DNA of 64,000 nt from Pseudoscleropodium purum. Its lineage: Eukaryota; Streptophyta; Bryopsida; Hypnales; Brachytheciaceae. Made by a program: the position numbers and the translations under genes. Of this stretch, positions 31,683 to 61,390 are shown piece by piece. The notes beneath the pieces are model-generated. The model was not told where the DNA came from. It searched no databases and worked only from the letters and a program-made list of their open reading frames with translations. The stretch is taken from positions 14,572,501 to 14,636,500 of the forward strand of contig OZ017799.1 in NCBI GenBank assembly GCA_963969395.1, in the 5' to 3' direction. Position 1 is the stretch's first letter; each line of letters begins with the position of its first letter.

Positions 31683-32868
31683 AATAGTGTCGCAGCACAG
31701 GGCAGGTCAATTCCCCATTATACTCACAAAAATCGCTCTAGAGTATAACTAAGTGACTCTAAAGATCGAACCCACGAGATCCTGTGAAGTATCTAGTTCT
31801 ATTAAGCAGTTAAGCTAAGTCAGTATCCCAATCTTACTTTCCGGTCCTAGATCTAAAACCAGAAATACCACCACATTGGATAACTATAGACCGGATTTCC
31901 CTTCTTCCGGTCCTACTAACTATCCGGTCCATACAAATACCCAAATCCCAGGATCTCACAACTTCCGATCCTGAAAATCCGTCCTGACCAATCCAGTCCG
32001 GATGGTCATCCTGTATCCGTAATCCTATCCGGTTTGGTTTTGCCTCTGTTTCACCATCAGAGGGGTCGCCGCTTAATTTTGAGAGTGGTAGGCCCACCAC
32101 TCCTTCCGTGACTTATAGTGGCTGAAGACCCACTGTCCTACCTTCTAAACTCCTAAGCTAATCCGGATCCGGTTTGGTCCTTCACAACAACCCAGATAGC
32201 AATCCGGGTCGTAGGTCACACAAAGACCCCACACTCGACCCTCTCGTACTACAACGACCTTGATGCTACTTCCGATCCGTGCGAAGACAAGTGGTTACAA
32301 GTGCACCCGTCCGTTCCAACATCAATTAAAGTTCTTCCGTTACCCATACGGGTGGTGAGACCTCACAGGAGATCGGACACTCGATTGGATTTCCCACTCG
32401 GGAGTTCTAGCGCAGCTAAGGAATCCCTCCCTACCCGCCTAGCCTAACAACGGCTTTCTCACCCGGAATCTCAAACTCTAGACGTGCTGAGGAACTAAGT
32501 TCACTCCCAACTCTTCGATACCTACTCACATGCACCTTGGATCGGAAAAGAAACACCAAGGGGAGAAATCACTCGCAAACCGGCTCGTACTATCCTAACT
32601 CCACATTATACAATCCTGTCGCGCTGGAGAGAGACACATAATGAGGAGAAGAGAAAGGTACAAGAAGTTTGCAAAATGAAAAACTCCCAGTTCCCATCTC
32701 AAGAACCGATTTATATACAAAGGGTAAAAACCCTAAAAGCACAAAAAGGAGCGGAAAACCCGTGGGGGTCCGCCGCCATCCTAATCTAACTTCCGGTCTA
32801 ACCTAATACTGTTGAGTCGGATCCGGATCCGGATCCGCTCGTACTTCTAACTGAAATCAAAATCCTAT

Positions 32869-34527
32869 CTACTCTACAACCCTAGATCCTATTGTCGGGC
32901 TTCCGACCTCCGGAACCAGCTCCTCGAAGACTTCACTCAAGTTCCGGATCCGTTCCCCCTCCGCAGGGTTAGATCCGGGTGAAGACTCCAGGTCGATTGT
33001 AACATCCGGTCTCGTGCCCGGAGTCTCAGCCCGTGTAGACTTCTTGGACTCAGGAGTCCAATCCTTCCTATCCTTCGCAATAGTCGCGTCCGGAAAGATA
33101 TCCGGTAGCGAGATATCCGAAAGATGAATCCCCTTAGAGCACGTCGCTCCAGTCAGCTTCTGGCTGCTTTCCTCGATCCGGTCCGCAGCCTTCCGCCCCT
33201 CCACCATTGCCGTCTCCACCTGCTCAACGAAGTCGGCGAGAATCCGGACCATCCGGGAACCGGATAGTTTCTTCTCTTCGTGGATCTTCTCGTCGAAGAG
33301 CTTCGCTTTGGCGGCGGCCGTTCCGGTCTCTCCCAGGATCGCCTTGATTCGCTCGGCTATCTTCCGAGTTTCCTCCGCCATCTCCCGGGTGGCCGTCACG
33401 TCTTCCCGATAGGCAAAAAGAGTTGCCTTCAGGTTATCCACCTCCTCCTGCAACCGGCGGATCTCTGCTTCCTGTTTCCGGGTCTCTTCCGGATTGGTGA
33501 TGCACTCCGCCACCTGTTCTGCCAACTTGCTGTCCGGTGGCGCACCTACCAACTTTCCGATCGCCGCAAGCGTCCTGTGCTTGACCTCCCAATCCGCCTT
33601 GATGTTGCAGAGGACGTTGATAAGACCGTTGAACGGATCTTGCATTTCCGGGTCTCCCCCGGAAACGGTCTTCTCGGCTTCCGGTTTCTCTTCCGGGGCC
33701 GGTCTGTCTTGACCGGGAGGCGTCCCGCGCTTGTGTGGAGGCGTCAACTTCTGTCGCTTGATCGGCGGCATCGGCTCCTCCTCTTCCTCGCTCGACTCCC
33801 GTTCTGACCCGGAATCGGATTCGGCCTCGTCATCCGTTTCCGACTCCCCATACTTCAGGAGGACTTCCTGAGTCTTCCACACCTTCTCCTCCGTGTCGGT
33901 GAGGACTTGGTGTTCCCGATAGAGGTGGAAGAGGTAAGGGCACACTAGAGTGGCCCTTTTCTTCCCAACCCTACTAACGAGCTGGGCCACGAGATCGGAA
34001 ATGATCCGTGCCCAGTCCACTTTCCGGGTACCACTGAGGGCACCGAAAATGGTGTTGCCGAGGGTGATCGTCACCCTGGTCGGCTTTTCCGAGTGAAGAA
34101 CCGGAACCAGGAATTGTAGGAGCCGACGGTGTCGGTCATCCACGCAATCCTCGACCGCGTATCCGTCCTTCGGGTTGACAGCCCCCTGGAACTTCCCTCG
34201 GACAAACTCATCCTTCCGGTTCGCCATCCCTAAACCTCCTGCCCGGAAACCGTAAACCGCTCTCCACATTCCCTCGTTCCAGCTGACAGGAGTTCCTCTC
34301 ACGGTGTTGTCAAACTGGTTGGACAGCTTTCCGAGGAGCTCCTTGACCATTCTCTCCTCCCTAAAACCCCAGGGTTTCTCGGTAAACCCTAGGCAACCCA
34401 TGGATTTGAGATCCTCTATGAGTTGAGACTTTTCCGGCTCTGTGGAGGGAATAACCGAAATGACTTTCCGGAGCTTCACCTCGCCTCCAGAGGGACTCAC
34501 TTGTCTCGACCTATGTAGCGGCAGCAT
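32869..34527 (-). CDS. Intact 552-residue ORF inside LTR-like unit B, function unknown
   Basis: An uninterrupted ATG-to-TAG frame that fills the middle of the LTR-like unit. The N-terminal part (to about residue 225) looks globular and contains VDWARIISDLVAQL and CPYLFHLYREHQVL. These remind me of uncharacterised proteins carried by plant retroelements, but I cannot name a family. A Ser/Glu/Asp-rich acidic run follows at about 225-250, then a basic patch PPIKRQKLTPPHKRG that looks like a nuclear localisation signal. A long charged region with coiled-coil character comes next (about 335-480), then a Pro/Ser-rich tail. A minus-strand TATA box (34702-34709) lies about 180 bp upstream. Absence of stops and frameshifts points to a young or selected copy. 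It has no zinc knuckle, protease or polymerase motif. Confidence 0.65.
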   Translation of the reverse strand: MLPLHRSRQVSPSGGEVKLRKVISVIPSTEPEKSQLIEDLKSMGCLGFTEKPWGFREERMVKELLGKLSNQFDNTVRGTPVSWNEGMWRAVYGFRAGGLGMANRKDEFVRGKFQGAVNPKDGYAVEDCVDDRHRRLLQFLVPVLHSEKPTRVTITLGNTIFGALSGTRKVDWARIISDLVAQLVSRVGKKRATLVCPYLFHLYREHQVLTDTEEKVWKTQEVLLKYGESETDDEAESDSGSERESSEEEEEPMPPIKRQKLTPPHKRGTPPGQDRPAPEEKPEAEKTVSGGDPEMQDPFNGLINVLCNIKADWEVKHRTLAAIGKLVGAPPDSKLAEQVAECITNPEETRKQEAEIRRLQEEVDNLKATLFAYREDVTATREMAEETRKIAERIKAILGETGTAAAKAKLFDEKIHEEKKLSGSRMVRILADFVEQVETAMVEGRKAADRIEESSQKLTGATCSKGIHLSDISLPDIFPDATIAKDRKDWTPESKKSTRAETPGTRPDVTIDLESSPGSNPAEGERIRNLSEVFEELVPEVGSPTIGSRVVE

Positions 34528-34701
34528 TCCCTCTCCAATCTATCTCACTCTCTCCTAGCCGCATGTCCCGTTCCTCACGTTCTCTCTCCGATCTCAACCG
34601 GAATCAAAACGAACAGAACACAAACGCACAAACGCCAAAAACTCAACCGCGCACGCTCAAGGTCGAGTTTCTAAAAGGGGGTGCAACAGTGAAAGCTCCT
34701 C

Positions 34702-34709
34702 CTTTTATA
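34702..34709 (-). promoter_or_regulatory. TATA-like box upstream of the LTR-resident ORF
   Basis: The minus strand reads CTATAAAAGG across 34710-34701, about 175-185 bp upstream of the ORF ATG and in the right orientation. Confidence 0.5.
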
Positions 34710-35231
34710 GTCCCTGGACCCTTTCCGGTTTGTCATCATGAATCCGGTTCATCATCATAATCCGGTCCTAGACCTAATCCGTGTTGCATTCCGTTTCCAT
34801 CGTTAGTTACTCCTGACCGGATTAGATCCAAAAGGCCCACTACTTCACATTCCGTGCTAATTTTGAGTTTTCCTTCTCCACCTTATCGGATCCGGTTCCC
34901 TAATGGCTAGTTTCCGTTCCTATTTTGGTGTATACTGAGAAAATTGAAATTTTAAGCTGCGACAAATAGGATTATTTCCAATTTAATTCCTAGTAGAATA
35001 TTGCAACCAAAAGAATCAAAAGGTATATATTCCTTTAACCACATACAATTGTGAACCTTAAGTGGTATTTCTAATTGCTAAATTTCATCACTCCACTCTT
35101 AATGACTACAAGGGTTTAGATCATCTTCCAATTTGTTCTTTATTTTTATTCTTTATTTTTTTCTTTATTTTCTTGAATCTTCCATTTCACTAGAAAGATT
35201 CTGGATTTTTTTGGATTTTTGCGTGTTTAAA

Positions 35232-36994: not shown

Positions 36995-38092
36995 ATGAAA
37001 AAGAGGACAACAATAGATGAGGTTCATTTACAGAACACAAGTATTCTTGTTGAAAATACTACTCAGCCACGTGCTATGCAACAAGAAACAATGAAAAAAT
37101 TTCTAAGGAAAAAAATTGCACTGCAAGCAATTGCCCTAAAACCAACTACTTTGAAAAAAACAGCTCGGAAACGAGCCCTTCTATATCCAAAAGAGATGGA
37201 ACTTAGTATTACAATTTTTGTGGGTAGCAATGACATTTTTGTTAACTTATTGGAAAAGGTTGAAGCATTCATTAAAAAGGAGTGCCTTTCAGGTCTTTGC
37301 TCCATTGAAAGAGGAGGGGCTATGTGCAGATTGCACATGCAAATGGTGTGTCGATTTTTCACCACTTTTGTAGTCATAGCCACAAAATGCTTCAAGATGT
37401 ATCTTGGATGGGATGATGCTAAGAAGGTCCTAGTGGGCCACCACATACTCACAAAAATTCTTCGTAACACCGGACTCCATACCGTCATTGGCATGCTTAG
37501 GTATTGTATCAAAGACAAAGGTAAGGAGCATTTTCAATATGTTCACAGAAATGTGACAAATGAACAAATTGAAGAAGGAATTGAGAAGTACATCAAGTAC
37601 GGTACTCCGTTTGCAAAGAACAAAATTGCTCTCACTCACTCCAACCTCATGGAGAAGGCCGCAGCATACTAGAGGTACAAGTTGAAGAAACAATTGGGTA
37701 GTACTCTTCCAAGCACTCTCTTGCCACTGTTACGTTTAGGACAATACATTCCCTCAATTTCTTGAGTTTTGCCAAGGTGGCAAGGTGGCATGCAATACAA
37801 CAGAGCTTCATTGTTGTAGAGGTGTATGATGAATCCACATACCGTAGAAATGGATGATGTAACTTAGATTTTCTTTGAGCACATGAATCCAAGTTCTTGC
37901 CTTGTTGATTTGGGGCGGCAGTGGCTTGCTAGAAAGCTTGACAAAACATGGGAAGGTGCACAACACAATTATGTTGTTCCAAATAAATGTGTTTCAAAAG
38001 TGTGGGATTTATTTTCTACGTTTTCTTTTGTTTTTTGTTCTTGTGCCAATTTTGTAAGTTTTGCATTGAAGAACTTGTTTTCGGCGCCTTAA
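36995..38092 (+). pseudogene. HUH-superfamily (Rep-type) endonuclease pseudogene
   Basis: One reading frame runs from the ATG at 36995 to about 38000, interrupted by stops at 37670 (TAG), 37763 (TGA), 37817 (TAG) and 37865 (TAG); it finally stops at 38090-38092. The first 226 codons contain a full Rep-like nuclease layout. There is a hydrophobic-Thr-hydrophobic segment (motif I-like, ELSITIF), RLHMQM as an HUQ metal-binding motif II, and YCIKD as the YxxK catalytic motif III. This combination is known from CRESS-DNA replicators and eukaryotic replitron-type transposons, and differs from the two-Tyr Helitron Rep. I recognise no helicase. A possible 3' splice site lies just before the ATG, so a 5' exon may exist. 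A replitron-like transposon relic is my preferred reading; a viral integration relic is the alternative. Confidence 0.62.
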
Positions 38093-41248: not shown

Positions 41249-41284
41249 GTATGCATCAGGGTTGACGAATCTCAACGTTCACCC

Positions 41285-41420
41285 CAAAATAGCGTCCGTT
41301 TTCTGGACGTCCGGACGCTAGCGGACGCAGCGTCCCTCCCACCGTCGGAAGGCGGACGGGCGGGGCGGTTGGGCGGACAGACCAGACGATGTGGACGGAC
41401 AGGGCGGACGGGGCGGACTT
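41285..41420. repeat. Left subterminal GTCCGCC cluster
   Basis: Dense GCGTCCG, GGACGC and GGGCGGACG words directly inside the left end, in otherwise AT-rich DNA. The companion at the right end (52495-52635) has the same words. Subterminal arrays of this kind are transposase-binding sites in known hAT elements. Confidence 0.6.
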
Positions 41421-41720
41421 CGCATTGCCATTAGTCATTAGAAAATTTTATATTGTTATGTAATTTGAATGTTACACAATCAAAAATGAATGCATCCACG
41501 TAAAATAAGATGTACGTATAAAAATATTTTTATACCCAAATGAAAATATAGCATCTTTATATATAAATATATATGTATAAACAAAATATATGAAAACATA
41601 GTTCCAATATCACTATTGAATCCTATACGATCTTTTTAAGATCTAAATCTTTCACATTCTTTTTTGTTTTTAAACAATGAAAGGACCATTGTTTTTAAAA
41701 AACAAAATTCTCCTCAAATC

Positions 41721-44700
41721 CTACTTTCCACCGGATGGACCACTACCTTCTCCCAAAACAAAAGGAAAATCTGTTGTACCGAAGAGTTTAGCAGATGATT
41801 GACGAGTTGACCGTTGTTGACTTGGACGGACTATTCGCCCTCCAGATTGAACTTCGATGTTCACCTTATGAAATTGTTTCTTGGTTTCCGGAGAGAAGTC
41901 ATCGTCCTCTTCACGCTTCCTTTTTTGTTTTCTTTTCGATGATAAATCAACTTTGTCTGCCTTCAAGGTTCTCAAGTTGCTCTCTACACGATCTACCATC
42001 GCTTGAACAACTTCATCATCTCCTTTCCTTTGCCATACTATGAGGCAGTCTCCATCCAATAGGAAAGCCTCCCAATGCCCTATAATATCGCCAATGCGCC
42101 TATCAAATGCTGCTGCCACATCTACAAATGAATGTCTTGTGCTTGTTTGTCCATTTGTATTGTAGACAGCACGAACTTTTGCAGCCTCTTCCAACTTCGA
42201 CAATAGAAGGGCTCTACCTACGAGGGTGTGGTCGTATGCCTTATACTGCTCATCGAACTCTTTTTTATGGTTCACCTCCACCCAACTGTCTTTTGGTCCT
42301 CTCTCCACTTTTTTATCTGAAAAACGAAAGAACTTTTCGTATTGCAAGCTCCAATGTCCCCCCATGTTGCGACAAAACATTTCACAGGCCGCGTCATCTA
42401 CGATTCCTCGAGTCCGCAATTCCACCTCTCTATTGTGAGTCATCCACACATCCAAATCCAATGGTTGCTAAGATTCCTCGTACAAATCATGCCTCTGTTC
42501 ATTTGCATTCCACCGGATTGGCTTCCCTCAATGTTGATAATTTTGGAATTTGTACGGCGCTTGATCAAGAGGAAGATTCCAACGATTGTACTCATGGCCT
42601 GGAGGCATAGCTTCCAAGATACCAAACATTTCGTAGAACCTAGCACTCAATGGACTACGACACTCAACACACACCGAACGAATGAGTGATGCTTTCACAA
42701 TGCAAGTGACATGGAAAGTGTGGTGACATTGGTCCATGGTTACCGCACCTTCCGGTCCGAAGAGGCCTTGGCAAAGGCTACAACAACCATCCAAGATTGG
42801 AGAGGTTGGATCACAAACATGCACCACTCGCTTGTCTTTCACATTGATGTGTGCTGAAAGTGTGTTGTAAGGGACCCATCCTTCCTCTACTTCCAAGGCC
42901 CAATTGATGGGTGGAGCTTGGTCCTTCTTTGTGTGGTTTAACCGCTTAAACATGGCATCCATGTCTCCCCAACATGTGATCTCCGTATATTCTTTAGAAG
43001 GATGTTGATCAAACATAGTCTTGAACCAACTCAAAGAGCTTTGAATGGCATCGCAATTTTCATTTGACTCCATTGCCAATGTTTGAAGACCTGCCATTGC
43101 TCGAGATACTACAGAGGGTCTATCTTGGAGTCTTTGTACCCATGCTAACCATCGAGACTCCAAGCCACTAGATGGCATAAACTTCTTCAAATTCAAGCAC
43201 AATTGCAATCGATTCAACTCGGATTCAACGATTCCTTTTGCTTCAATTGCCTCCTCCAATTTATGCTTCAACTCTTCAAAGTCACAATTCTCCGTTTGCA
43301 TCTCCGCATTCACGTAAACGGATGAAAACTTTTCCATTGATAGTTGTTGTGTCGCTTTTAACATGCTCATGTCGTGACTTTCTTGTACATTCACAATGGC
43401 AGGGTTGTCGCTTACTTCGGCCTTATCAAAAGGAAGAGAGAGCTTATCTTCACTCTCTTGAGTCTCTTGACTGTCTCCGAGTACAATCACTGGTGAGATT
43501 GCAACTTCACTCGGATTCTTGGAGGTCCCTTGCAATTCTGCAATCCGTTTACGCATCTTCATCAACTCCTCCATTTGCCTCGATGATTGTTGATTTAAAT
43601 GTTCAACCTCACTCTTCGAAGTCTTTAATTTCAACTCCAACACTCTGCACCTTGCTTCCACTCCTCCAAGGTCAGCAATTTTCTTCTCATATTCCACCAA
43701 TTGTAGTATGTGAACATCTCTTTCTTCGAAAAGTGGTCCGAAAGTCTTCGTGAGATTCTGAAATGCTATAGCACCTTTCAACATCTCTGGTGCCATGAAA
43801 GAAAACTCCTTGGCCAAATTCATAAAAGTCGGAGCAACTTTCGCTAAAAATTCAGCTGACATCGTCATCTTGAAAGCTGTATCAAATATATGTGCAACAT
43901 TCTTTGGATTTGTAAGTGGATTCATTCGAACAGTAGTAGCACCATCATCGGGGTTAGACGATCCGCCTATTTCTTTATGAAGGTTAGCAAACTGAACCGA
44001 GAGCTTCAAAAGATTTTCCAATTATTTTGGATTGGACATGTCTTGCAAGGTTCGATGTAGAGGACTTGGCAATGACGCTGTAAACGGAAACTCCTCCGCC
44101 CGCCTTTTACGCTCGGAACTCCATAATGAGGATATATTATCAAACGTCACGCCTTGTCCACGAGGTGTATATACTTTGTCTTGTAAACTTAACGTTGCAC
44201 TAGATTCAACGCCTTGATGCATAGGCGGAGATTTGTAGACCAAACTATCAAAACAATTGTTGGCTATCAGACTATCAATTGTAGCATTAGCTTTTGCCAC
44301 TTTCTCCGCCAAGACTTCGTCTACTTTACTTTTTGAAGTTTCCCCGCGTTCCGTGCAAACCTTGCCTTTGTTTACAAACTCCGTTTGCGTTTGTGCCGCA
44401 ACATTTGATATAAAGGTCAAACGCGTTGAAGCTGTGGAAAAGACTTCACCCTCCTGCGCCTCTACATCTTTCTCCATATCTTTCCCCACATTTTTCGAAG
44501 AGCTTTCATTGATTGCTTTTGTTGGAGATTGTACAAACCGTAATTCTTCAACATTTGAGGCTTTCTCGACACCATCCGTTTTCACCTCAATAGTATTTTT
44601 TAATACTTTTTCTGTTTCTCCCTCTGAATTGTATAAGTCGGGAATGTCCTTTTGATTGGCTTCAAGTAGAAGTGGGCAAGCTGTTGTTGTCGGAAACGTA

Positions 44701-45119
44701 CTCCAATCGACCTTGTGCTCTAATATAAGTTCCGCGTAAACCATACACGCCACACTATAATTAATATAACCTTTGCTTCTGCGCTTGTTTCCGAATAGAA
44801 CACGCCACACCTCCTCAGATTGATGGACAAAATGTTTGTTGTTGCAAGTCCATGGTTTACAACAAAAATCCCGTCTATGACTCTTGTGCGACTCCTGAAG
44901 TCACAACTTGTCAATGTGGTACATTTTAACATAGGTCCTACACATTTTGTATGTCCAATACTCCGCATCTTCATATTCCCACCTGCTCTCTGCTTTAATT
45001 GTAGGGTCATTTAAAATGTCAAGCCGAAGGTCATGTGTAGCCCCCTTCACTTTGCTCTTTTTCTTCGCTTCGCTTCCCGGAGTCACCCCATCCATATTTC
45101 GATCACCTTCACCGTTCAT
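41721..45119 (-). pseudogene. Element gene 1: long coiled-coil / RING-H2 protein, broken by four stops
   Basis: A single intronless frame of 1133 codons from the ATG at 45119 to the stop at 41721, broken at 44901 (TGA), 44022 (TAA), 42528 (TGA) and 42468 (TAG). The order of recognisable parts is as follows. An N-terminal domain (YKMCRTYVKMYHIDKL, then VWRVL and VYAELILEHKVDW) is shared with element gene 2. A Ser/Glu/Lys-rich region follows, then heptad-like coiled-coil stretches. Next is a RING-H2 finger at about 42655-42800 with CSLC, CHHTFHVTC and CVEC. A C-terminal part ends in a basic patch (KRKQKRKREEDDD) typical of nuclear proteins. Known RING-H2 fingers of this layout are E3 ubiquitin ligases. 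All four stops can arise from sense codons by one C-to-T or G-to-A change. A GTCCGCC cluster and a TATA box lie upstream. Confidence 0.65.
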
Positions 45120-45330
45120 GATTGTCAATTGGATTCAATAACCAATTGAAGTGAATAAAAAAATCTCACGTGATAGTCAAAAGTGATGGCATCAACCGCA
45201 ACACAGTAACACAAGATAGAGGACCCCAACTCTCCACCCCGTAGGAGCAACTAGCGCATAAAGCAATAGTAGCACATCCAACTTGGCACCGAAGGAGAAT
45301 TGAAGTGAGAAGAATGAAAGTCACTCCACC

Positions 45331-45337
45331 CTTATAG
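45331..45337 (-). promoter_or_regulatory. TATA-like box of element gene 1
   Basis: The minus strand reads GGCTATAAGGG about 210 bp upstream of the ATG at 45119. It adjoins the GTCCGCC cluster at about 45345-45580. Confidence 0.45.
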
Positions 45338-45344
45338 CCATCCG

Positions 45345-45580
45345 CCGTCGGACCTGTCCCGGACTGCGCGAAGCGGCTTCGAACCTCGCGTCCGCTGCGC
45401 GGATCGACGACATCCGCTTCGGCAGCGGACGTGCCAACTGCCCGTCACCCCGACCGACTGCCCCGTCCGACGATCCAATCGGCGCGTTCGCCCGGACTGT
45501 CTACACTATCCGCCTTCCGACGCCGTCCGCGCTTTGAACACGCCGACCGCCCCACTTAAACACTGACCGCCGACGGCGTC
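45345..45580. repeat. GTCCGCC cluster at the promoter of element gene 1
   Basis: A sharply GC-rich island with GTCCGC, CCGTCCG and GCGGACG words in both orientations, ending next to the gene 1 TATA box. Confidence 0.55.
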
Positions 45581-47517
45581 CATCCAACTGTCCATTGGTG
45601 CATCCTATAAGGCCATTATTATTCAAAAAAAGCGGTAACATTTCAAAAATAAAACAGCCTAATAATCATTGCTAAATGAGGATCAATGTAATTGATTTAT
45701 CATTTAAAAAAAAAAAAAATGTAAACCCTAAACCCTATACCCTAATTACCCTACACCTTTTCTTTTCTCCCCTAAATTGTTTTACGAATGAGGGGAATGT
45801 GGTTAAGTTCAATATGTTTGGATTATTTACTTATATTATCCTTCTAAATAGGTTTTGAGAAGATCTAAAGATGGTGGGGATTTTTTTAAAGTTCATTAGG
45901 AAATCAAATGTTTTGCAAAAATAATCAATTCCTTTTTCATCGTAAGCAAATGAAATTTTTTAAAAAGGCCCCAATACATAATTAGAATAACAGTTTAATG
46001 GATTTCAACCTCATGATATTTAATGAAAGGTTGTGATTTCCAATTAGAAGTGCATCACGATCTTCAAATGAACATAGAGTCTTTCATATTTTTTAATGAA
46101 ATTTTGATTAGATTTGAAAACAAAGAAAAAGAATCAATGTTTTAACTTTCAAATCATGTATGGCTATATTTTTCCTTGAAAACATAGAAAAATTCGTTAC
46201 TTGAGTTGGTGGAGTAGAATACATTATACATTTATACATGTGCTATATTTATTTTGAAGGGTAATTCCAATATTCTTATTTTAGATGTTTTTAAATATTA
46301 ATTTTAAAAAAGAGGGTTCATTGTTTAAAGATCTAAAAAATTGACAAACATAATTTCTATTATAAATAGGAATTGAATTCGGAATTCGAATTTTGAAATG
46401 ATTCAAATGAACAAGATATTGATCATAAAATATTTCTTCGTTTGATTTTTCAAAATGAATTCATGAAACAATTGCAAACTTTTGAACTTAGGTATATGGT
46501 ATTGTTTTCGGTTTGTACTTTGTAGAGTATAATACTTCAATTTTAATCCTAAATAAATGAAAGAACTCCACATGAATGAAATATTTCTATGTATTGCACA
46601 AAGATTTCTACCAATTACTATGATAATTAAATAAATTGTTACATTTCATAAAATATTTTACATAGAAAGAAAAAATCATTTCAGTTTTCAATCATGATAA
46701 ATGATGTCTTCTACTCTTTCTGTTATATGTTCATTTTGTATAACGTGTACATTGTACAATCTTTGAGAGCAAGGGAGTTCATTTTTGACTCTCATTGAAA
46801 TAGAAAATATATTTGTGTTAATGTGTTTGGATTTTGAAATCATTATGTATTCTACGGTCTTGCAAGAATACATCTTGCTCCTTCCTTTGAATCCTTTTGA
46901 TATTTTTTTTTTTTTTTTTTGCTTTCTGTCTCGTAGGGCTCTTGTTCTCTTGTTCTCTTTATTTGACCAGCCTATTTGGCTTGGCTCCTAGTTTTTTGTT
47001 TTTTTAATGCAATGGTTTATGCATATGTTATAAAAAAAACTATATTATTTATTTAAAATTTATATATTGATGAACAAACGCGAAATGGCATTCAATGCTT
47101 TCACATTTAAAGTTATAAATCTATCATAAATCACTCTTGCAAATTTGAATGATTGAATCGAAAATTTGAAAATGTAATTATAAGAGCTTTCAATTCAATC
47201 AATTGCATAAATCATAAATGTTGAAATGCAACTCGTATGAGTTTAGCATCTATGAAGATTAATTCATGCCATCCACATGCAATTTTCCAATTTAATAAAA
47301 TGCAATTGAATACTTCAATTTTTTTCTTTCCAATTCTCCAAGTAACATTCACTTCATATCTTTTTCTATTTGTTTATTTATTTTTTGGGAACAAATGGAG
47401 AAACCATCTTTGTCTATATTTGCACATGCACTCTTATTTGATTGATGAAGAATAGATTTATGAAATATATAATCATTGATTTGTTTATGTTGATTTATCT
47501 AATATATTTTATGTATG

Positions 47518-47550
<33 letters not shown>

Positions 47551-48015
47551 CATTAAAAGAATATGGAAGACAAGATTGATAGATTGTGTTCAAATGTTGT
47601 TGATTTTGAAATGATTTAGTACTATATCATTTATAAGAATATTATAATAGTGTTATGTTATAATATTCCTAAAACAATTGCAACAAATATTAAAATACAT
47701 GCTAAGTTAGGTTTGGTAGCCTACCAATTGTTCATTAATAGACATAATTGAGTAGCCCCTTTAAATGAAACATTCAATATCTAATATCTTACAATTCAAA
47801 TGGTGGATTTGTCTAAAATTTTTTCCACATCTTTTCCAACTAATTTACTACAAGATCTACGGTTACATATGTCAAAAAGTATTTTTCTTCTAAAACTTGG
47901 TATTTGCACTACTAATGGTAGTTTTGAAGTGCTTTTAGTGAAAAGAACTTTAGGGGTTAAACATCTATACCGTGAGATTTTGAAAAAAGAACAATTGCTT
48001 CATTGGGTTTAGGGT
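45581..48015. other. AT-rich core of the transposon, no gene seen
   Basis: About 2.4 kb of AT-rich DNA with no ORF over about 75 codons. It includes a T run near 46905 and a (TA)n microsatellite at about 47517-47551. CTTTAGGGGTTAA at about 47949 resembles an R1 terminus. Confidence 0.4.
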
Positions 48016-48240
48016 TTAAGGTGAGCTGTCCGCCCTATCCGCCCCGTCCGCCGTGATATCCGTCCGCCCTGTCCACTCGATTCGGAGTCCGCCCTGTCCG
48101 CCCCGTCCTCCGTCCGCCCGGTCCGCCCCGTCTACCCCGATACCCGTCCGCCCCGGTACGGCCATCCGATTGACACGCGGACTGATGTGGTCCGCATGAT
48201 CTGGATGTCCGCCTCAGGGCGTCCGCATATATATATGGGG
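48016..48240. repeat. GTCCGCC cluster at the promoter of element gene 2
   Basis: Many CCGTCCGCCC / GTCCGCCCTGTCC units in about 200 bp, ending at a TATATATA run (48227-48236). This is the densest of the five clusters. Confidence 0.6.
48227..48236 (+). promoter_or_regulatory. TATA-like box of element gene 2
   Basis: GCATATATATATGG directly after the GTCCGCC cluster and about 225 bp before the ATG at 48460. Confidence 0.45.
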
Positions 48241-48459
48241 AGGCGAACGGCTCATTCCGAACAGTCGTTCTCTTTTGGAGTGGGCGGACCAGTGCCTTGA
48301 AAGCTTTGCGCGCCCCTTCCGCTTTGAGTGAACGATTGTTGTGAGATTGTTACAAATTTTCACAAAGTTCACGCTTGTAAAATTTTAATTAATTAATTAA
48401 ATCAAAATTTTGGTTCTTAACCTTTCTAATTATTTCATTCTCTTTGCTTCAGCTTCATC

Positions 48460-49712
48460 ATGCCGAACGATAGAACACCCAAAAAAAGTAGTCGAAAGGA
48501 AAGACTCCAATTGTTCGATTGGGATGCTTGGGCCGATCCATTGTGCGTAGGTGAACCGAAATGGGAAGAGGAACCAACAAAAACGTGGGATTGCTCAATG
48601 TGCAAGAAGTATGTAAAAATGACTCACATTCAAAAACTTTGGCCACGTGAACGTATAGAGTACTAAGCGCCACGTTGGGAAGGACAAATGTCTACGTGCC
48701 AAAGTGAGCATTTCAAACAACGATACACACAAGTGCATCGAGTTCTTGGCATTAAAAGCTCCAAACCAAATATAATGAATTATAATGTTATGGCAATGGT
48801 TTGGGCAGAGATTGTACTCCACAAGGACGTGGACTGGCATACCGCTACAAGTCGCAATGTGGAGAACTATACGTGCACGGATGCCGTTATAGATACACAG
48901 TGGAGGGGCGCAAGCGATTGCATGCCAGAGTGGTCTAATCGAGGTTATCTACAACAACCTTCAGTTGTTCTACGAGATGCTGAAGATGCGTGGACAGATG
49001 ACGATGATATGCAAGCGCCTGTCACATTTGGAGTTAGGCACGAGCGGATAGAAGAACAAGAACGAATTGAATTCGAACAACAAATGCAAGAGGCAACACG
49101 CAGAAGCCTTCAAGATCGTGGACGGCAAGATAGGCATGGTGGGTCCTACAGACATGAACATGGAACGCAAGAATCTGAACAAGGAAGAGGTGGTTCATAC
49201 TCTAGTTACGATCCTCAAAATAGATATGAAGGTGGAAGAGGGAACTATGGATCCACGCATTATGGTGGTTCAAGTGCAGTTGGTTCTCGTTATGGCACTC
49301 CCCTGAAATTGGCTCTCAAAGTGAAGCAAGTAGCTATGGCAACACGCACTATGGTAAGCCTAATGGATCTGGTTCATATTATACGACGTCCACTCAAGTG
49401 GGCTCCGAAGGTAGTGGAGGAAGTCATGTAACCCCGCAGTATAGTTACTCTCTTCACGGAAGTGCCCAATACTATCCGGGATCAACTGGAAGTGATTCAT
49501 ACGGGCATCATGGGGCCTCTTATTATAGGGCTTCAAATGAAAGAGGATCAGAGCCTACTACTCCGATTCCTCCTCCCACTTTTGGAGGTTCAAACTCTGG
49601 ACAAGGAGGTGCACCAAGTGGATATCACGGAAACTACGAAGGTGGTCCATTCATTAGAGTACAAAGAAGAGGCAACGGTCAACAATTTGAGTTCGATTCA
49701 GATTCCGAATAA
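48460..49712 (+). pseudogene. Element gene 2: shared N-terminal domain plus Gly/Ser/Tyr-rich tail, broken
   Basis: The frame opens at the ATG at 48460 and is broken by a TAA at 48664. It continues in the same frame to about 49300, where a one-base change in a CCCC run shifts the frame. The new frame runs to the stop at 49710. The N-terminal part (CSMCKKYVKMTHIQKLW; later VHRVLG, MNYNVMAMVWAEIVLH, KDVDW) parallels element gene 1. A short acidic segment and a Gln/Glu/Arg-rich helix (EQERIEFEQQMQEATRRSLQ) follow. The remainder is low-complexity Gly/Ser/Tyr/His repeats of the SYGNTHYG and GGSSAVGSRYG type, like prion-like or RNA-granule tails, ending FDSDSE. The broken frame may be decay or, less likely, programmed. 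I do not know the family. Confidence 0.6.
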
Positions 49713-50309
49713 AAAAACATGCAAGTATATAGTGAGCATGTATTTGCTCAATTTTCTCATTTTTACTCTCATGACAAGTATAGAGCACTAGATTGGTAGA
49801 AGTAGTATAAAATTTTAAATGAATAGAACAATTTTGAACAACAATTTTGTTCACTTTTTCAAAAAGTGTTGTGTAATAGTGTACACCAAGTATGTATGTA
49901 GGCAAGCATATTGTTGAAGACATCATTGTATTATTTTATAATAGCGTTGATGTATAAGGCTATAAGCGACTTTGATAAATAATAAAAATATGAAGAAGAA
50001 ATATAACTTTGTAAGAGCCATATTATGTCCATTTTTGAATTTAGCATTCGAGGTTAAATATGTACTAGCATGGTGTGTATTTTGAAATTATTGTTGTGTG
50101 TTTATTACATTTAGAAACTCGTAAATGGTATAAATGTATTTCTAATTAATTTATGAAAGATTGAATTATTTCAATATTTGAAAATTTTTTATTTTTCATT
50201 CAACGATTGCTAAAAACTAAAATGATTTTTTATTGGTATGAAGAAATGCCCAAATTAGACAATTAGTGGTTCTTCTTTAGATTCTATTTTCAAATATGGA
50301 AAATAAATC

Positions 50310-50405
50310 GGATCGGGCAGACGCCAGATTTGTCCGCCCGTGGCCGTCCGATGGTGCGAACGGGCTGTCCGTGCCTTATAAGAGGGGCGGATGGGCCGTC
50401 CGCAT
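50310..50405. repeat. GTCCGCC cluster at the promoter of element gene 3
   Basis: GTCCGCCCGTGGCCGTCCG and GGGCGGATGGGCCGTCCGC around a TTATAAG box at 50376-50382. The ATG of gene 3 follows about 215 bp later. Confidence 0.55.
50376..50382 (+). promoter_or_regulatory. TATA-like box of element gene 3
   Basis: CCTTATAAGAGG embedded in the GTCCGCC cluster upstream of the kinase-like gene. Confidence 0.45.
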
Positions 50406-50598
50406 TGTCACTTTTGCTTTGCCCCTTGTGAATGCAAAGTGGAGCAGAGAGCTTGGTGGTTCATCCTCTATTGACTCCTTTCCAAGGCAAGGCAAGAGTG
50501 GTTTATTGAGGCCCCCTTGTTGCCAATTTTTTAGACACTTGCACGTGAATTCAATTTTTAATTAAAAAAATTGATCGATATCAGTTTCATTTGTCACG

Positions 50599-52092
50599 AT
50601 GCCGAACGGGAAGAAGAAGGTTGCGAAGCTAAAACATGGAGAGGGACCATCAAACTTGGAGGTAGTTCGCCAAAATCCTTCGGAAGAATGCAAAAAATTC
50701 ATGATCGAGTGCATCGTTCAATTTTATGAATCGGAAACAACATTGTCTTTAGACAATAAGTACATCAGATATCAAGAGGAGTGCGTGTCTAAATTCAAGG
50801 TAGACATGACACAGATGTTGTTGAATGCATTGAATGTGGCGAAGTGGCATGACGAAATGCATAAAGCGCACTTCACCAAATGTTTGGAGAACAAGGTTCA
50901 TGACGCTTTGTGGAATTCCAAAGTCATTTTGGTTAAATATGGCAAGGAATATCGACCCAATGACGCCCAGTTTGAAGAAATGATTCTGAAAGCGGACTTG
51001 TTTAGGGGGCAATGTGCTCCATTCGCCAAAAAGCACAATCGAGTTGGTTCAATTGGTTGGTGGAAAAGCAATGATGGAGTTGCTAAAGTGGAAAGGACCA
51101 AACGGCACCTCATAGCACTTCTAGATACAGCACGCGTGATTGTTGTTGATGATAGAACGATGAGAGGTGGATATGCAACGATTCAAAAGGTCCGTATTGA
51201 AGGATGTCCAAGAATACTTCCTTATTGGGAGTTTGCGGCAAAAAAATCCATTCACCACCAAACTCGACCCGATCTTGCAAAGTTAGAACATCAAAACGAA
51301 TCAATGGCTGTTCGAATTCCACACGCGGGTGTGATACGGTTTGCTGCGGTGTACGAAACAACGTGTGAAGATTATGTGTATTGGTGGAATGGTGGAACTC
51401 TTCGACAAATGTTGAATATGGATAAGGACTATCCAAACAACATTCAAATCCGTTTGATGTATACAAATTCAACCGAAGAGGAGGTTGTAAAAGCTCATCG
51501 TTTAGGGCGATATCGGAAGAAGCGCACGGAGTTGACATGGGCGTTTATGCATATAATGTATGCAATGCATCTTGCTGGATATTTGCACAATGATCTTTCT
51601 CCGGACAACATCTTGTTGCATTTTCCAGAGGATAAGTCACGTGTGTACATTGGAGTTTGCGATTGGGGCATGACCACCTTAGCTTCTCAGCCAATGAAGT
51701 CTTTGTACACATTCACATCAACAGATGAGATGAAACAGACTTTGCAGAGGAGATGGTGGGTAGATCCATGTATTGCATATTTGCATAAAGCAGGTGCAGA
51801 TGTGGAAGTCATTCCGATGTATTCACGTAAGTCGGAAAAGTATACCATTCGAAAAATTGCTCGGCGAATGAATGGAAACAACATGTCAGAGGCGTATTTC
51901 AACTTGCTACGAAAAACACCTAATGCGACACAATTTGCCTTTCATGACTTTGCAAAAGTGTTTTATGCTTACTTGAAGCGCATTTCTTCAAAGACTGACG
52001 ATGAAAATACTAGTTTGGCCCATGTGATTACGCGATTTTCTAATACATATCGTTGGCCGATGCCAAATGAACATTTTTGCCATTTATATTAG
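50599..52092 (+). CDS. Element gene 3: intact transposon-borne protein-kinase-like protein
   Basis: An intronless, uninterrupted 497-residue ORF. Residues 1-175 are a Lys-rich N-terminal region with no domain I recognise. A kinase-like domain follows. RGGYATIQKVRI is a degenerate nucleotide loop, EFAAKK is the likely VAIK-lysine position, and HAGVIRFAAVYE is the helix-C to beta-4 part. YVYWWNGGTLRQML is the hinge and helix D. HNDLSPDN is the catalytic loop, with Asp332 and Asn337, and CDWGM stands for DFG, with Asp355. The key residues are present, so activity is plausible, although the Gly-rich loop is poor. The first ten bases, ATGCCGAACG, are identical to those of element gene 2. The gene has its own TATA box and GTCCGCC cluster. 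It is the only intact gene of the three, perhaps because this copy is younger or retained. Confidence 0.75.
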   Translation: MPNGKKKVAKLKHGEGPSNLEVVRQNPSEECKKFMIECIVQFYESETTLSLDNKYIRYQEECVSKFKVDMTQMLLNALNVAKWHDEMHKAHFTKCLENKVHDALWNSKVILVKYGKEYRPNDAQFEEMILKADLFRGQCAPFAKKHNRVGSIGWWKSNDGVAKVERTKRHLIALLDTARVIVVDDRTMRGGYATIQKVRIEGCPRILPYWEFAAKKSIHHQTRPDLAKLEHQNESMAVRIPHAGVIRFAAVYETTCEDYVYWWNGGTLRQMLNMDKDYPNNIQIRLMYTNSTEEEVVKAHRLGRYRKKRTELTWAFMHIMYAMHLAGYLHNDLSPDNILLHFPEDKSRVYIGVCDWGMTTLASQPMKSLYTFTSTDEMKQTLQRRWWVDPCIAYLHKAGADVEVIPMYSRKSEKYTIRKIARRMNGNNMSEAYFNLLRKTPNATQFAFHDFAKVFYAYLKRISSKTDDENTSLAHVITRFSNTYRWPMPNEHFCHLY

Positions 52093-52494
52093 ATTGGTAG
52101 TGCAGAAGTAGTAGTTGAATAGGTTATATAGGCATTAAAAATTAGTTTAGAAATATAGAGTTGGAATGAAAAAAATTATATGTGCAATTAGCCAAATGTG
52201 CACAATGTATGGTATTCTACATTAAATTGAATACATTTTGCCCATATTGATTATGTTTGTATTTGTGTTGATCTTGATTTTTTAAATAGTATATATATAT
52301 ATATATATTTGAAGTCACAAACTTTTTTAGTTTGCCTTCTAAAAATGAATTGGAATTTTTTCATAGTTTCAAGACTATCATGGACTCATGGTCAAACTTT
52401 ATAATCTTTCAACTTATAAGAGACATTGTTTTAATAACAAATTGCGAACCATTGCACTTCATTTAACATTTAATTGTTTAAAGATTAAGGGAGT

Positions 52495-52635
52495 GACCGC
52501 GGAGCAGTTTGGATAGGGCGGTCGGGGGAAATAAGGCTGTCAAAGCGGACGGGGCGGTCCCGGCGAACGTTGCGTCCGCCGGGACCGCGAATGTCAGCGG
52601 ACGCTGCGGACACAACGTCCGCGTCCGGACATCGT
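52495..52635. repeat. Right subterminal GTCCGCC cluster
   Basis: GCGGACGGGGCGG, TGCGTCCGCCGG and GTCCGCGTCCGGAC directly inside the right end. These are the same words as at the left end, in opposite overall orientation. Confidence 0.6.
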
Positions 52636-52653
52636 ATCAACCCTGGTATGCAT

Positions 52654-56975: not shown

Positions 56976-59900
56976 TTAGGTGATCAAAAGAATAGAACAC
57001 CAATGTGTTTTCATGTCTTGAATGAGTTGGGCACTCAACACCACACCACTATTAGACACCTTTAGAATTCGCATCTCCCGTGAGTTTGTGAGATCTGGTA
57101 GAGCTTGCAACTTCATGCACCTGCTAACATCCAACTTTTGAAATTCTGAATTCAAAGGCCCTATGCATATTAAGTTCACTAAGTTTGTACATTCTTGTAC
57201 ATCAAGCTTGACCAATTGTAGAAATTTGGTCAAGTTTGGGAACTCTTGGATGGAACATCATCTACAGATTAAAGTACGTAGTTGCGAACAAGCAGTCAAC
57301 CCTTGTAAATCTTCAAATCCACCGTCAGACACATCCAATTTGTAGAGACCTGTCAATGCTTGAAGGTCTAAACCTAAGTTCTCAAGAAGCCAAGGATGCC
57401 CACTTGCCTTGAGTGATTTGAAGTTCTGCAACCCAAGGATGCCATGAACATCTCTAAGTTGTGCACCATGCTTGATCCGCAGAGTCCTTAGCTTAGCAAG
57501 CTCTCGTAGATCAGGTAATGCATCCAACTTGTCACAATCAGTGATCTTTAGCTTCTCCAAGCTAGTCACATTCATCAAACCTAACAAATCCTCAAATTTG
57601 CACTTTTTCAATTTCAAATCACACAGTCTTAATAGGCTTTGAAGATCGGGCAATGCACACATACATTTGCAATTGTCTATAGTGATGGATTTCGACAACA
57701 CTAATTCAATTAGACTTGAAAATCCTTAGCTTGACCACCTAAAAATATAGAGTATTTATAGCTTTGTAAGTTTGCATAAATTAGGCCCATCATGCAATTC
57801 ATCCATTTCGATATCCAAACTCCAGAGTGAAATCAAGTCACTACATCCCATAGAAGCTTGTGAAGCACAAATTAGATCCAATTCCAAAGTTTGTAGATTT
57901 GTAAGCTTGTGCATATTTGGGATTTGGATGAGATTCTCACAACCTAACATTTTGAGAGATTGCAAATAAACCAACTCTTCTAAACCTAGCAATGATTCAA
58001 TGTGCTTGCAATTTGACACATCCAATATCCTCAACTTTTGGAGGTTGTGCATATCCGGCAACTCCGCAAGATTTGAACAATAAGTAGCAATTAGCTCCAC
58101 CAAACTAACTAGGTCACACAAACCTAGTAGGCATGTTAGTGACCAACAAGAGCACACAACCAACTTTTGCAATCGTTTAAGCTTTTGTAAGTTGGATACC
58201 TTTTTCAGCATGGAATAACCATTCAAACAAAGTTCTTCCAATGCAACTAACTCATCCACACCTGGGTAGCTCTCCAATGACTTTCACTTGTTCAAATCCA
58301 AGAATTGCAAGTAGGTGTGCTTTGAGCTTATTTAAGCCAATGAGGGCGACCACCAAACTACTCAACTGAAAACAAGCCACTCGAAGAGAAACAAGGTTGC
58401 TTAGATTTGGTAAATAGCCACTTCGTTACAGATCCAACATTTGGAGGTTTGTCAAACAACCAATCTCGTCAATGCATGGAGAATTTGATGGAATGCCAAA
58501 CCATTGTAGAGAGCTCAACTTCAACAAGGAACCCAATTTGATTAGGGAGGTCAAAGTCTTTGGTTTGAATGATACCAATTCCAAGCTCTTCAAGTGTTTT
58601 AGGCCTCTTAGATCCAAATCCAAATTCAAATCGAGATCCAAGTATGTATTGAGCTTCAAAACCACCACATTGGGGAAACAAGAAAAATTAATGTCCTCCA
58701 ATTTTGTAAACCCCTTAGCCAAGAAATACATCTACTTCACCTTTATAAAATGATCACCATTAGTCAAGCTGCCTTCTTCAAGTGTATTGTACTTGTACAT
58801 CCATTGTTTGTTTTCAAACTCCACAGCTTTGGTCTCAAATCTTGTAAAGTCACGCTACAAGTTGTGCATGCTAATTCTACCAAATCCATCGCCAAGATTC
58901 TCCAATACTGATTTCTTCTTCAAGTTCTCCAACTATGAACAAAAAAAAAGGAAAAAAAAGACAATTAAAAAGAAAGAAAGAAATTCATTCTACTTGAAAA
59001 AATGAAACTGTAACATTTGATACATGGACAAAATTGCATAAAATTGGTATACAAGATGTCAACTAGGAAAGGGACATGGTTTTAGACATTTCTCCTCAGT
59101 AATTTCAATAGTCAAATAGATATCTAAGATTCATATTGATGCTTCACAAAATTTTCAAGCCCTAAGGTTGTAGGTCAAAGTTTCAACATTTCAACCACAA
59201 ACTAATTAAAAGATGCCTTTCAATTCAATAAATAGAATACTTTGAAAGACAATTGAGACCTCAAGTTTGCATCTATCTCATATCTTGGTCACCAGAGGTT
59301 AGCACAAACAACTAAAAAGTCATCTTTAAGACTTGAAAGTTCAAACTCATCCCATTTTGGAAAGATCTCATTTTGAAAATAGTACTAAAAGCTGAAAAAA
59401 TGACAAGAAACAAGTTTCAACTACTAAACTTTCAAAAGTCAAGAATTATAAGGTCACTCTAAACAAATGCTTCCACTCCTTGTACCTCTCATCAAGGAAG
59501 TCACAAAAATATAAAAACCACAAATTCAAAGAATACTCACCCATTTGATCACATCCTCAACAAGTATTTTATGTACCATAGCAAGCCACTCAAATATGGT
59601 CCAACAGAATGAACCCCCTCAAAAGCAAGCATTATTAAAAAGAGCAAACAAAGCCACATCCATGAACAAAAGTTGATCTTGGGGATTTAATGCATCAAAA
59701 CTTTTTCTCAAGATAGAAAAGATAGGGTGTTGAAGTTCTCCAAAAGGATTCAAAAAGTCAAGTTTGTGCAAGACCGACCACCACTGCTTAGGGACATATC
59801 CAACACATCCAAGTTGATCACCCAATGCTTGCAACGCCAAGAGGTGGTAATGGTGACTAATGCCATCACCTTTTTGGAAATGACATTGCTCTACACAAGA

Positions 59901-61390
59901 GGAGATTAACTTAAGGTCATCCTTGTTGCTCAAGTATGTGGAAGGGATGCAAGAAGCATGATAAAGGAATAAAGAACTTGCTTCCTCTAGCTCCAACTCA
60001 AGCATCTCCTTGCAATCACTTACATCAATTCTCAAAGCCGTCAATTCATTTAGAGAACGTGTTGTCACAAGCACAATACTCCCAAGTCCATAGTTTGCTC
60101 GTAAAAGAGTCAAAGTGTGACTAGTAGTTGCACTTGACACATTGTTAATTGCCAAAAAGAATTTGGCATCCATCCTATCTCTCATAAGGTGGTGACGATA
60201 CTACAAGTTCACAACATCTCAAGTTTAGTAAGACACAAACAAATGGAACTACAACAAATTTCAAATCATACTAAGACCTTGTCTACACATACTCCACTTC
60301 AATGCACATAATGAATGTAAGAATTAAATCCACGCTTTTCTAGAGATGGTTATCTCAACATACCTTATCTACATCCATTGCTCCCAAATGTTGAAGACTT
60401 TTATCCGTAAGCTTTCCCAACACTTCTTTCAATAGTTCTTCTTCACTTCGACTTCCCAACTCCACATGTCCAACTTTGTCACAATATTCCATTGATAAAT
60501 GGTTACACATAGCTTTGCAAATGGTGGTTTTCCCAAAACCTCCAACTCCATATAAGCCTACTATACGCACCTTATACAATGAGGACATTTTTGATTCCTT
60601 GATAGTTTTGTGGATCACCTACACAATAACCAAGAGAGATGGAATCAATTAAAATCCAATAATTCACATAAAAGAAATTCATCACCACCCACCATAAGTG
60701 GATATTTCCAATCAAACCAATGTCATCCTCATCATTGTTGACAAAAAGCATCGGGATAAAAAGCACATAAAACAATCATCTAAAATGATTGAATCACATA
60801 CAAACCTTGCATAAATGTTCCTTGCCTTGAATGTGAGAATCTTCAAACCTTGTCCCCGGATGAACCAAAGCACAAATGGCTTGAACTATCTCTTCCCAAA
60901 ATTTCACTTCCCCCAACTCCAAGTTGTATGTCAAGGCATTTGTTGGGCAAAACAATTGCAAGCCACTCTCCCATTCTTTCACATCAATCCTACTATCTTC
61001 CTCAGCCCAAGTCTACCACAATGATGACCACCTCTTATGGTAACTTGCATCATGACATTGAGAAAATGTAATGCCAAGAAGGATTGGCATTATTGTGAAG
61101 TATGGCTTATGCTTCTTGACATTTGTCATGGCCACCAACTCCAGCATGGGCCACTTGGAAGTGAAGAATTCCTCCGATAGCACCACTACACCAACTTCAT
61201 ATTGTTCAATGGCTTCAAAGATAAGTCTTGAAAAACCCTTTCCAATGGGCAAGCAATCCCTGTACTTGTTGGAAAATGGATGGCGGTCACATCTCTCCAA
61301 GTCCACACACAATTAATCCACAAACCCTTTTTCAGCACCACTGTGACTCAAGAACACCTTGTGCTTGGGTTGTAAGATGTGATTCCTGCT
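56976..61390 (-). pseudogene. TIR-NB-LRR resistance-type gene, decayed
   Basis: Order on the minus strand: a TIR exon from about 61390 to 60806 (VFLSHSGAEKGFVD, then VGVVVLSEEFF), and exon 60618-60364 with the P-loop GVGGFGKTT. Exon 60200-59541 follows with FFLAINNV, GSIVLVTTRS and LRKSFDALNPQDQLLFMD of the NB-ARC domain. LRR sequence from 58932 down to 56976 has repeated LxxLxxLxLxxC units such as LPDMHNLQKLRILDVSNC. In-frame stops occur at 61313 (TAA), 61013 (TAG), 59619 (TGA), 58855 (TAG), 58732 (TAG) and 58426 (TAA). There is a frame change near 58300-58400 and further stops in the LRR part. Intact members act as intracellular immune receptors with NADase TIR domains; this copy cannot make a full protein. 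Start and 5' end are uncertain. Confidence 0.8.

What the first reader, a model, noticed from the sequence alone, without database searches (positions are those of the whole stretch)
41249..52653. Giant hAT-like transposon carrying a kinase, a RING-H2 protein and a prion-like-tailed protein, without a recognisable transposase
Seen: CAGGGTTGA inverted ends and a perfect 8-bp duplication GTATGCAT enclose 11.4 kb with three intronless genes, none of which reads as a hAT transposase. Known: plant hAT elements usually carry one transposase gene, and Pack-type elements carry gene fragments. Inference: these are dedicated genes of an undescribed element lineage, with signalling (kinase) and ubiquitin (RING) functions, rather than random captures, because two share a domain and all three share promoter architecture.
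Basis: partly seen in the sequence, partly recalled or inferred. Interest (0 to 1): 0.92.

Follow-up and report, generated by a model that had tools for sequence, protein, structure and literature searches.

The report
hAT transposon carrying kinase and RING
This is a real, repeatedly copied jumping gene of the hAT kind from a plant that is probably a moss; it has swapped its own mobility enzyme for regulatory-type genes and apparently moves with help from sister elements that keep the enzyme, which matters because hAT jumping genes are thought to carry little besides that enzyme.

Summary
Positions 41257-52645 (11,389 bp) lie between CAGGGTTGA inverted ends and a perfect 8-bp duplication. Inside are a RING-H2/coiled-coil gene (1,133 codons, four in-frame stops), an N-domain gene with a Gly/Tyr/Ser-rich tail (one stop, one frameshift) and an intact 497-aa kinase gene. 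No transposase was found. The host genome (313 Mb, unnamed) holds many copies: 39 further left ends at 86-93% identity among 40 scored candidates, full-length copies with their own 8-bp duplications, and 3,449 left-end sites with up to 2 mismatches, many belonging to miniature derivatives. The missing partner was found: a 9,545-bp element with the same ends and a perfect duplication carries the same kinase and spacer, but a hAT transposase gene where the window element has the RING gene. Of 86 kinase copies scored, 22 have a divergent hAT gene 2.5-12 kb away (shifted controls 0-1). A distant locus in the same genome carries relatives of all four genes side by side. The genes are therefore best read as dedicated accessory genes of a multi-gene hAT lineage, and the window copy as a transposase-less member moved in trans. 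What the kinase and RING protein do is inferred, not shown.

The parts
41249..41256 (.). Left copy of the 8-bp target site duplication GTATGCAT
41257..41407 (+). Left end: TIR CAGGGTTGA plus CGGACG-rich subterminal region; element 1-151 shared at 86% with the transposase-bearing sister
41721..45119 (-). Gene 1: coiled-coil plus RING-H2 protein, 1,133 codons, four in-frame stops here; sits where the sister element carries the hAT transposase gene, same orientation
45310..45640 (-). GC-rich CGGAC/GTCCG island upstream of gene 1, with TATA-like box
   Evidence: TATA reading is mine
45494..48007 (.). AT-rich spacer, 94% identical in the transposase-bearing sister element
48028..48226 (+). GC-rich tandem-repeat island upstream of gene 2; its core 48143-48226 is found inverted inside 8 of 9 miniature derivatives examined
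48460..49712 (+). Gene 2: N-terminal domain shared with gene 1, Gly/Tyr/Ser-rich tail; one in-frame stop and a frameshift here
50310..50410 (+). GC-rich GTCCG island upstream of the kinase gene
50599..52092 (+). Gene 3: protein kinase with helical N-terminal region, 497 aa, intact; shared with the transposase-bearing sister
52469..52645 (-). Right end: TIR plus GTCCG-rich subterminal region, shared with sister element and miniature derivatives
52646..52653 (.). Right copy of the 8-bp target site duplication GTATGCAT

Best explanation
The window holds a transposase-less member of a high-copy, multi-gene hAT transposon family, probably in a moss. Shown: the element shares its ends, spacer and kinase gene with a 9.5-kb sister element that carries a hAT transposase gene in the place of gene 1. 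Inferred: the sister's transposase recognises the shared ends (terminal CAGGGTTGA plus subterminal CGGAC repeats), excises the window-type element and reinserts it, giving 8-bp duplications; the same happens to the miniature derivatives. Shown: kinase and RING-H2 genes occur intact elsewhere (in other copies or other genomes), and relatives of kinase, RING-H2 and N-domain genes lie beside a hAT transposase gene at a distant locus. Inferred, more weakly: they encode accessory regulators. In this reading the N-domain proteins bind the CGGAC arrays at ends and promoters, and the kinase and the RING-type ubiquitin ligase modify the transposase or host silencing/repair factors.
For: 39 further left ends at 86-93% besides the window's own and one at 79%, 40 of 3,102 candidates scored. 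Of 10 copies fetched, 5 have exact 8-bp TSDs, 1 matches at 7 of 8, 1 has none and 3 were too rearranged to test; long pieces are about 92-96% identical, one 1.2-kb piece 89%. Left-end pattern (up to 2 mismatches) 3,449 sites, right-end pattern (none) 968 sites, reversed-pattern controls 0. Sister element C1:2680608-2690152 has TSD GGCGGGAC on both sides, same ends, kinase ORF at 90% aa identity, spacer at 94%, and a hAT gene with DUF659 (E 1.3e-21) and Dimer_Tnp_hAT (E 3.5e-9). On contig C1, 6 of 17 hAT domains lie 7.45-8.02 kb from a right end on the same side. 22 of 86 scored kinase copies have a divergent hAT gene 2.5-12 kb away; ten shifted controls gave 0-1. The distant locus C41:27012400-27029900 has a hAT ORF of 1,172 codons, a RING-H2 ORF of 760, an N-domain ORF of 328 and a kinase (39% to P0057 over 353 aa, E 5e-80).
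Against: No transposition was observed, and only one sister element was fetched in full. In the eight window-type copies compared, gene 1 and gene 2 are open in none (gene 2 is largely missing in one) and the kinase only in the window copy. dN/dS of the window kinase against the sister kinase is 0.69, so recent constraint is weak. The sister's hAT gene is split into two ORFs. Ends of the distant four-gene locus were not found and its kinase has one in-frame stop and is cut by the edge of the fetched stretch. No biochemical activity of kinase, RING or N-domain protein is known, the gene 1 fold prediction was uninformative, and gene 2 was never searched for homologues in its right frame (one search used a wrong one).
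Confidence: 0.88

Rival explanations
1. Pack-type element: a hAT that happened to capture unrelated host gene fragments, with no function for the element.
For: The window copy has no recognised transposase and two of its three genes are broken. Pack-type elements in plants are known to hold gene fragments (passage on Pack-MULEs in PMC6431247).
Against: Genes have full-length relatives in other genomes (three gene 1 relatives of 1,120-1,140 aa; 58 kinase relatives). The kinase recurs in the copies compared and beside hAT transposases, and relatives of the gene set recur at a distant locus. A host progenitor was not searched for separately.
Confidence: 0.05
2. The window element is autonomous, and one of its three proteins (most likely gene 1) is an unrecognised transposase.
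For: Most of the full window-type copies examined keep the same gene set (one lacks gene 2), and no transposase domain was found in the proteins scanned.
Against: A hAT transposase occupies the same slot in a sister element with the same ends. Gene 1 matches only RING and coiled-coil proteins. RING and hAT genes sit side by side at a distant locus. The gene 1 fold itself could not be tested.
Confidence: 0.04
3. The window element is a simple internal-deletion derivative (Ds type) of the sister element.
For: Shared ends, spacer and kinase, no transposase; miniature derivatives exist.
Against: It is longer than the sister (11.4 against 9.5 kb), and about 4 kb of its left arm plus 2.4 kb around gene 2 have no long match there. 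It is a gene exchange, not a deletion.
Confidence: 0.03

Closest known systems
hAT superfamily transposons (Ac/Ds, Hermes, Tol2)
   Same: 8-bp target duplications, short TIRs beginning CAGGG, subterminal repeats, transposase with DUF659 and hAT dimerisation region in the sister element; autonomous, non-autonomous and miniature forms
   Different: Kinase, RING-H2 and N-domain genes as recurring parts. A large transposase-less form in which the transposase gene is replaced by another conserved gene rather than deleted
VANDAL/VANC elements of Arabidopsis (sequence-specific anti-silencing; outline and abstract of PMC10398659 seen)
   Same: A plant DNA transposon with accessory genes; repeat arrays in non-coding regions that an element-encoded protein could bind
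   Different: VANDALs are Mutator-like (recalled). No kinase or RING (recalled), no sequence relation tested, and anti-silencing here is only a hypothesis
Pack-TYPE / Pack-MULE elements (passage in PMC6431247)
   Same: Non-autonomous element with genes between TIRs, moved in trans
   Different: Genes here have full-length conserved relatives, and the kinase is shared with the transposase-bearing sister
ToxhAT of wheat-pathogenic fungi (abstracts seen in search listing)
   Same: About 14-kb transposon, hAT-type by name, with non-transposase cargo
   Different: Different host kingdom and cargo; not known to me as a high-copy multi-gene lineage with its own accessory gene set

Membership tests
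hAT superfamily | 8-bp target site duplication | tested here: met
   Window GTATGCAT exact; of 10 copies fetched, 5 exact, 1 at 7 of 8, 1 none, 3 untestable; sister element exact. Over 20 duplications (8 large, 12 miniature) T at position 2 in 12, A at position 7 in 11, both in 6, a partial fit to the nTnnnnAn preference reported for Hermes (passage)
hAT superfamily | Short TIRs of CAGGG type with subterminal repeats | tested here: met
   CAGGGTTGA at both ends; CGGAC/GTCCG arrays at both ends
hAT superfamily | Transposase with hAT dimerisation domain inside the element | tested here: not met
   None found in the window element. Met in the sister element with the same ends, so the window element is filed as a non-autonomous member of the family, not as an autonomous hAT
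Non-autonomous derivative by internal deletion (Ds type) | Sequence is a subset of the autonomous element | tested here: not met
   Element positions of about 152-4237 and 6752-9136 have no long match in the sister (two matches of 31 and 46 bp only)
Pack-TYPE elements | Carries fragments of host genes | tested here: inconclusive
   Full-length conserved relatives, genes repeated with the element speak against it; a host progenitor was not searched for separately
Eukaryotic protein kinase fold | Kinase fold and conserved catalytic residues | tested here: met
   Model pLDDT 82.9, PDB kinases top hits at probability 1.00. K215, E234, D332, N337 and D355 invariant in 28 sequences (role assignment is mine). 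Pfam Pkinase below its cut-off (25.7 against 31.7 bits)
RING-H2 E3 ligases | RING-H2 zinc finger | tested here: met
   zf-RING_11 above cut-off in relative P0060 (27.9 against 27.0 bits) but below it in the window's decayed copy (21.6); RING finger protein 24 in PDB at E 1.4e-6. Ligase activity not testable here
VANC-like anti-silencing system | Element protein binds own non-coding repeats and removes silencing marks | not testable with these tools
   Only the anatomy (tandem repeats upstream of gene 2) is compatible

The most novel reading that the evidence does not exclude
A bipartite hAT system: two element types with the same ends split an ancestral four-gene set. One carries transposase plus kinase; the other carries the RING-H2 gene, the N-domain gene and the kinase. 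They propagate together, each supplying in trans what the other lacks, with the element-encoded kinase and ubiquitin ligase acting on the transposase or on host silencing.
Probability: 0.22. Interest if true: 0.88.

Novelty: new variant of a known kind. Interest (0 to 1): 0.74.

Why it matters
hAT transposons are usually pictured as one transposase gene between two ends. Here a high-copy lineage carries a protein kinase, a RING-H2 protein and a related N-domain protein as lasting parts of the element, and one element type has exchanged the transposase gene for a regulator gene. This makes a testable question out of how cut-and-paste elements control their own activity or the host's response, and it would explain anonymous kinase and RING gene families in moss-type genomes as transposon genes.

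Tried and rejected
Searching viral contigs for the kinase and RING profiles and prokaryote genome contigs gave no relative. The homologue search with gene 2 gave nothing, but on checking I found that it began one base late (48461 instead of 48460) and so used a wrong frame: it says nothing about gene 2, and no search was left to repeat it. The same slip affects the 'g2' query and the gene 2 lines (longest open stretch 74-261 aa in eight copies, against about 418 codons) and replace them. A comparison in the wrong frame is void too. A structure prediction for gene 1 from 4 sequences was useless (pLDDT 35), so its fold remains untested. PDB search with the sister's second hAT ORF gave nothing at E up to 1. 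I first suspected the insertions inside other copies of carrying the missing transposase; those looked at read as a retroelement, a second repeat with a 552-aa type ORF, and miniature copies. Counts from the genome search are lower bounds: 86 of 1,541 kinase candidates, 63 of 1,107 hAT candidates and 40 of 3,102 left-end candidates were scored. Literature: nine searches; among the rows listed (at most 20 each, of up to 835 papers) none describes a hAT element with kinase or RING genes. Only listings were read, plus passages of PMC6431247 and PMC10368747 and the outline and abstract of PMC10398659. The library lacks most subscription papers.

Full report
What is there. The window holds an 11,389-bp insertion at 41257-52645 with terminal CAGGGTTGA repeats, flanked by the perfect 8-bp duplication GTATGCAT. 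In the whole window only this CAGGG...CCCTG pair (of 121 tested, 0.3-20 kb apart) has an identical flanking 8-mer; 100 Markov random sequences gave two such pairs, none with comparable terminal repeats. Inside are three gene-sized frames. Gene 1 (45119->41721, minus) is one frame of 1,133 codons with four in-frame stops. Gene 2 (48460-49712, plus) has one stop and a frameshift. The kinase gene (50599-52092, plus, 497 aa) is intact. Pfam finds sub-threshold RING fingers in gene 1, a sub-threshold kinase in gene 3, nothing in the first 283 codons of gene 2, and no transposase.

The genes are conserved. The kinase has 58 relatives at E up to 1e-3. Two are named Ceratodon purpureus; one of these stands for a cluster of 126 member sequences and lies on a 110-Mb contig (the V chromosome, going by its locus name). 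One more is named from a Bacilli metagenome bin on a 2.9-kb contig, which I take for contamination. Lysine 215, glutamate 234, aspartate 332, asparagine 337 and aspartate 355 are invariant in the 28 aligned, and the predicted structure (pLDDT 82.9) is a protein kinase with a helical N-terminal region. Gene 1 has four relatives; three are full-length, 1,120-1,140 aa at 44-71% identity, and the fourth is an 834-aa protein, 95% identical over 71% of the query. Their recognisable parts are a RING-H2 finger and coiled coil. [quoted passage not shown] in two other copies 33-39% over 109-132 aa. Gene 2 itself was not searched for homologues in its right frame (see Tried and rejected).

It is a family. 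In the host genome (G000, 313 Mb, 52 contigs) the left end has 39 further places at 86-93% identity and one at 79%; 40 of 3,102 candidates were scored. Ten copies were fetched: in seven the element could be delimited (9.9-12.2 kb); five of these have exact 8-bp duplications, one matches at 7 of 8, one has none; the other three are too rearranged to judge. Two more were fetched and not delimited. Long pieces are about 92-96% identical to the window copy, one 1.2-kb piece 89%. Of singleton differences among eight copies, 1,011 of 1,570 are C to T or G to A, the signature of methylated, decaying DNA (interpretation mine). In those eight, gene 1 is open in 0, gene 2 in 0 (longest stretch 261 aa; largely missing in one) and the kinase in 1, the window copy. 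The left-end pattern with up to 2 mismatches occurs 3,449 times, the right-end pattern without mismatches 968 times, reversed-pattern controls 0. Twelve short elements of 222-376 bp with the same ends were seen inside or beside the fetched copies, 11 with exact and one with 7-of-8 duplications; the script listed only pairs with at most one mismatch in the duplication, so this is not a rate. Eight of nine examined join left end, the inverted core of the gene 2 promoter, and right end. On contig C1, pairing the 100 listed left and 100 listed right ends gave 37 pairs, 26 of them 204-626 bp long.

The missing transposase. The genome has 150 scored hAT dimerisation domains out of 664 candidates. 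On C1, 6 of the 17 hAT hits lie 7.45-8.02 kb from a right end, in these six always on the same side; this spacing was noticed after the fact. The one fetched, C1:2680608-2690152, is a 9,545-bp element with the perfect duplication GGCGGGAC and the same left and right ends. It carries a 505-codon open kinase frame, 90% identical to the window's protein, and the same spacer at 94%. In place of gene 1, in the same orientation, it has a hAT transposase gene in two adjacent ORFs with DUF659 (1.3e-21), a weak BED finger (0.031, below cut-off) and the hAT dimerisation region (3.5e-9). Gene 2 and its surroundings are absent there, as they are in one window-type copy (C41_3.0). The transposase family is abundant: 63 scored of 1,107 candidates, 93-100% identical, 19 of 63 without stops in the 702-aa stretch. 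The kinase has 86 scored of 1,541 candidates, 26 of 86 without stops. 22 of 86 kinase copies have a divergent hAT gene 2.5-12 kb away and 6 of 86 a window-type left end, none both. Ten shifted controls gave 0-1 hAT pairs (mean 0.2) and 0-1 left-end pairs. Some pairs had been seen by eye before the distance limits were set. The hAT list used was only a sample, so 22 is a lower bound.

A distant relative with everything. The locus C41:27012400-27029900 has an uninterrupted hAT frame of 1,172 codons (38% identical to the family's transposase over 333 aa), a RING-H2 frame of 760 codons (23% to P0060 over 450 aa, E 5e-21, plus 33% over the N-terminal domain), a frame of 328 codons with that same N-terminal domain, and a kinase relative (39% to P0057 over 353 aa, E 5e-80; one in-frame stop; cut off by the edge of the fetched stretch). 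Lengths are from stop to stop. Its terminal repeats and duplication were not found, so that these four genes form one element is inferred from their adjacency.

How it most likely works. Transposition in trans by the sister's hAT transposase is the simplest reading of shared ends plus hAT-type duplications; the chemistry is that established for hAT elements. Hermes transposase prefers 8-bp targets of the form nTnnnnAn and its BED domains bind subterminal repeats (passages of PMC10368747); here subterminal CGGAC arrays would fill that place. Similar arrays lie upstream of all three genes, so a protein that binds ends would also bind promoters. I propose that the N-domain proteins (gene 1, gene 2) do this and that kinase and RING protein adjust transposase or host silencing. 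A precedent for element-encoded proteins acting on tandem repeats in an element's own non-coding regions is VANC in Arabidopsis (abstract of PMC10398659). No step of this functional part is shown.

Results against the reading. The kinase of the window and of the sister differ with dN/dS 0.69, so recent constraint on these copies is weak. 60 of 86 kinase copies and 44 of 63 hAT copies scored have stops. Only one sister element was read in full. The gene 1 fold is unknown. That the host is a moss is inferred from Ceratodon purpureus being the only eukaryote named among the relatives.

Novelty. hAT membership of the family is supported; the window element itself fails the defining test of an autonomous hAT. 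The searched literature (rows listed only, many subscription papers missing) shows no description of hAT elements with kinase and RING genes. I rate it a new variant of a known kind.

Noticed in passing
31688-34965: A second repeat of about 3.3 kb with inverted ends TGTCGCAGC/GCTGCGACA carries a 552-aa ORF (32869-34527, minus) without a Pfam match above chance. A copy 92% identical sits inside another window-type element, and related ORFs lie in three more fetched stretches: possibly another gene-carrying transposon without a transposase.
   Followed up: partly
36995-37672: A 225-aa ORF that reminded me of an HUH-endonuclease (Replitron-like) protein; recalled resemblance only, no search run.
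   Followed up: no
57756-60185: Leucine-rich-repeat ORF (LRR_4, E 3.5e-6) and a neighbouring ORF that looks NB-ARC-like to me (no Pfam match), as in plant resistance genes.
   Followed up: no
L033/L034 (C44:2291861-2306860), about 4.2-10.4 kb from the start: A 6.2-kb insertion in another copy of the element has long open frames (613 and 728 codons) that read to me as a retroelement polyprotein.
   Followed up: no
48143-48226 and miniature elements in L013-L032: 8 of 9 miniature derivatives examined carry the inverted core of the gene 2 promoter between the two ends, so a promoter or protein-binding array may be kept for a function.
   Followed up: partly
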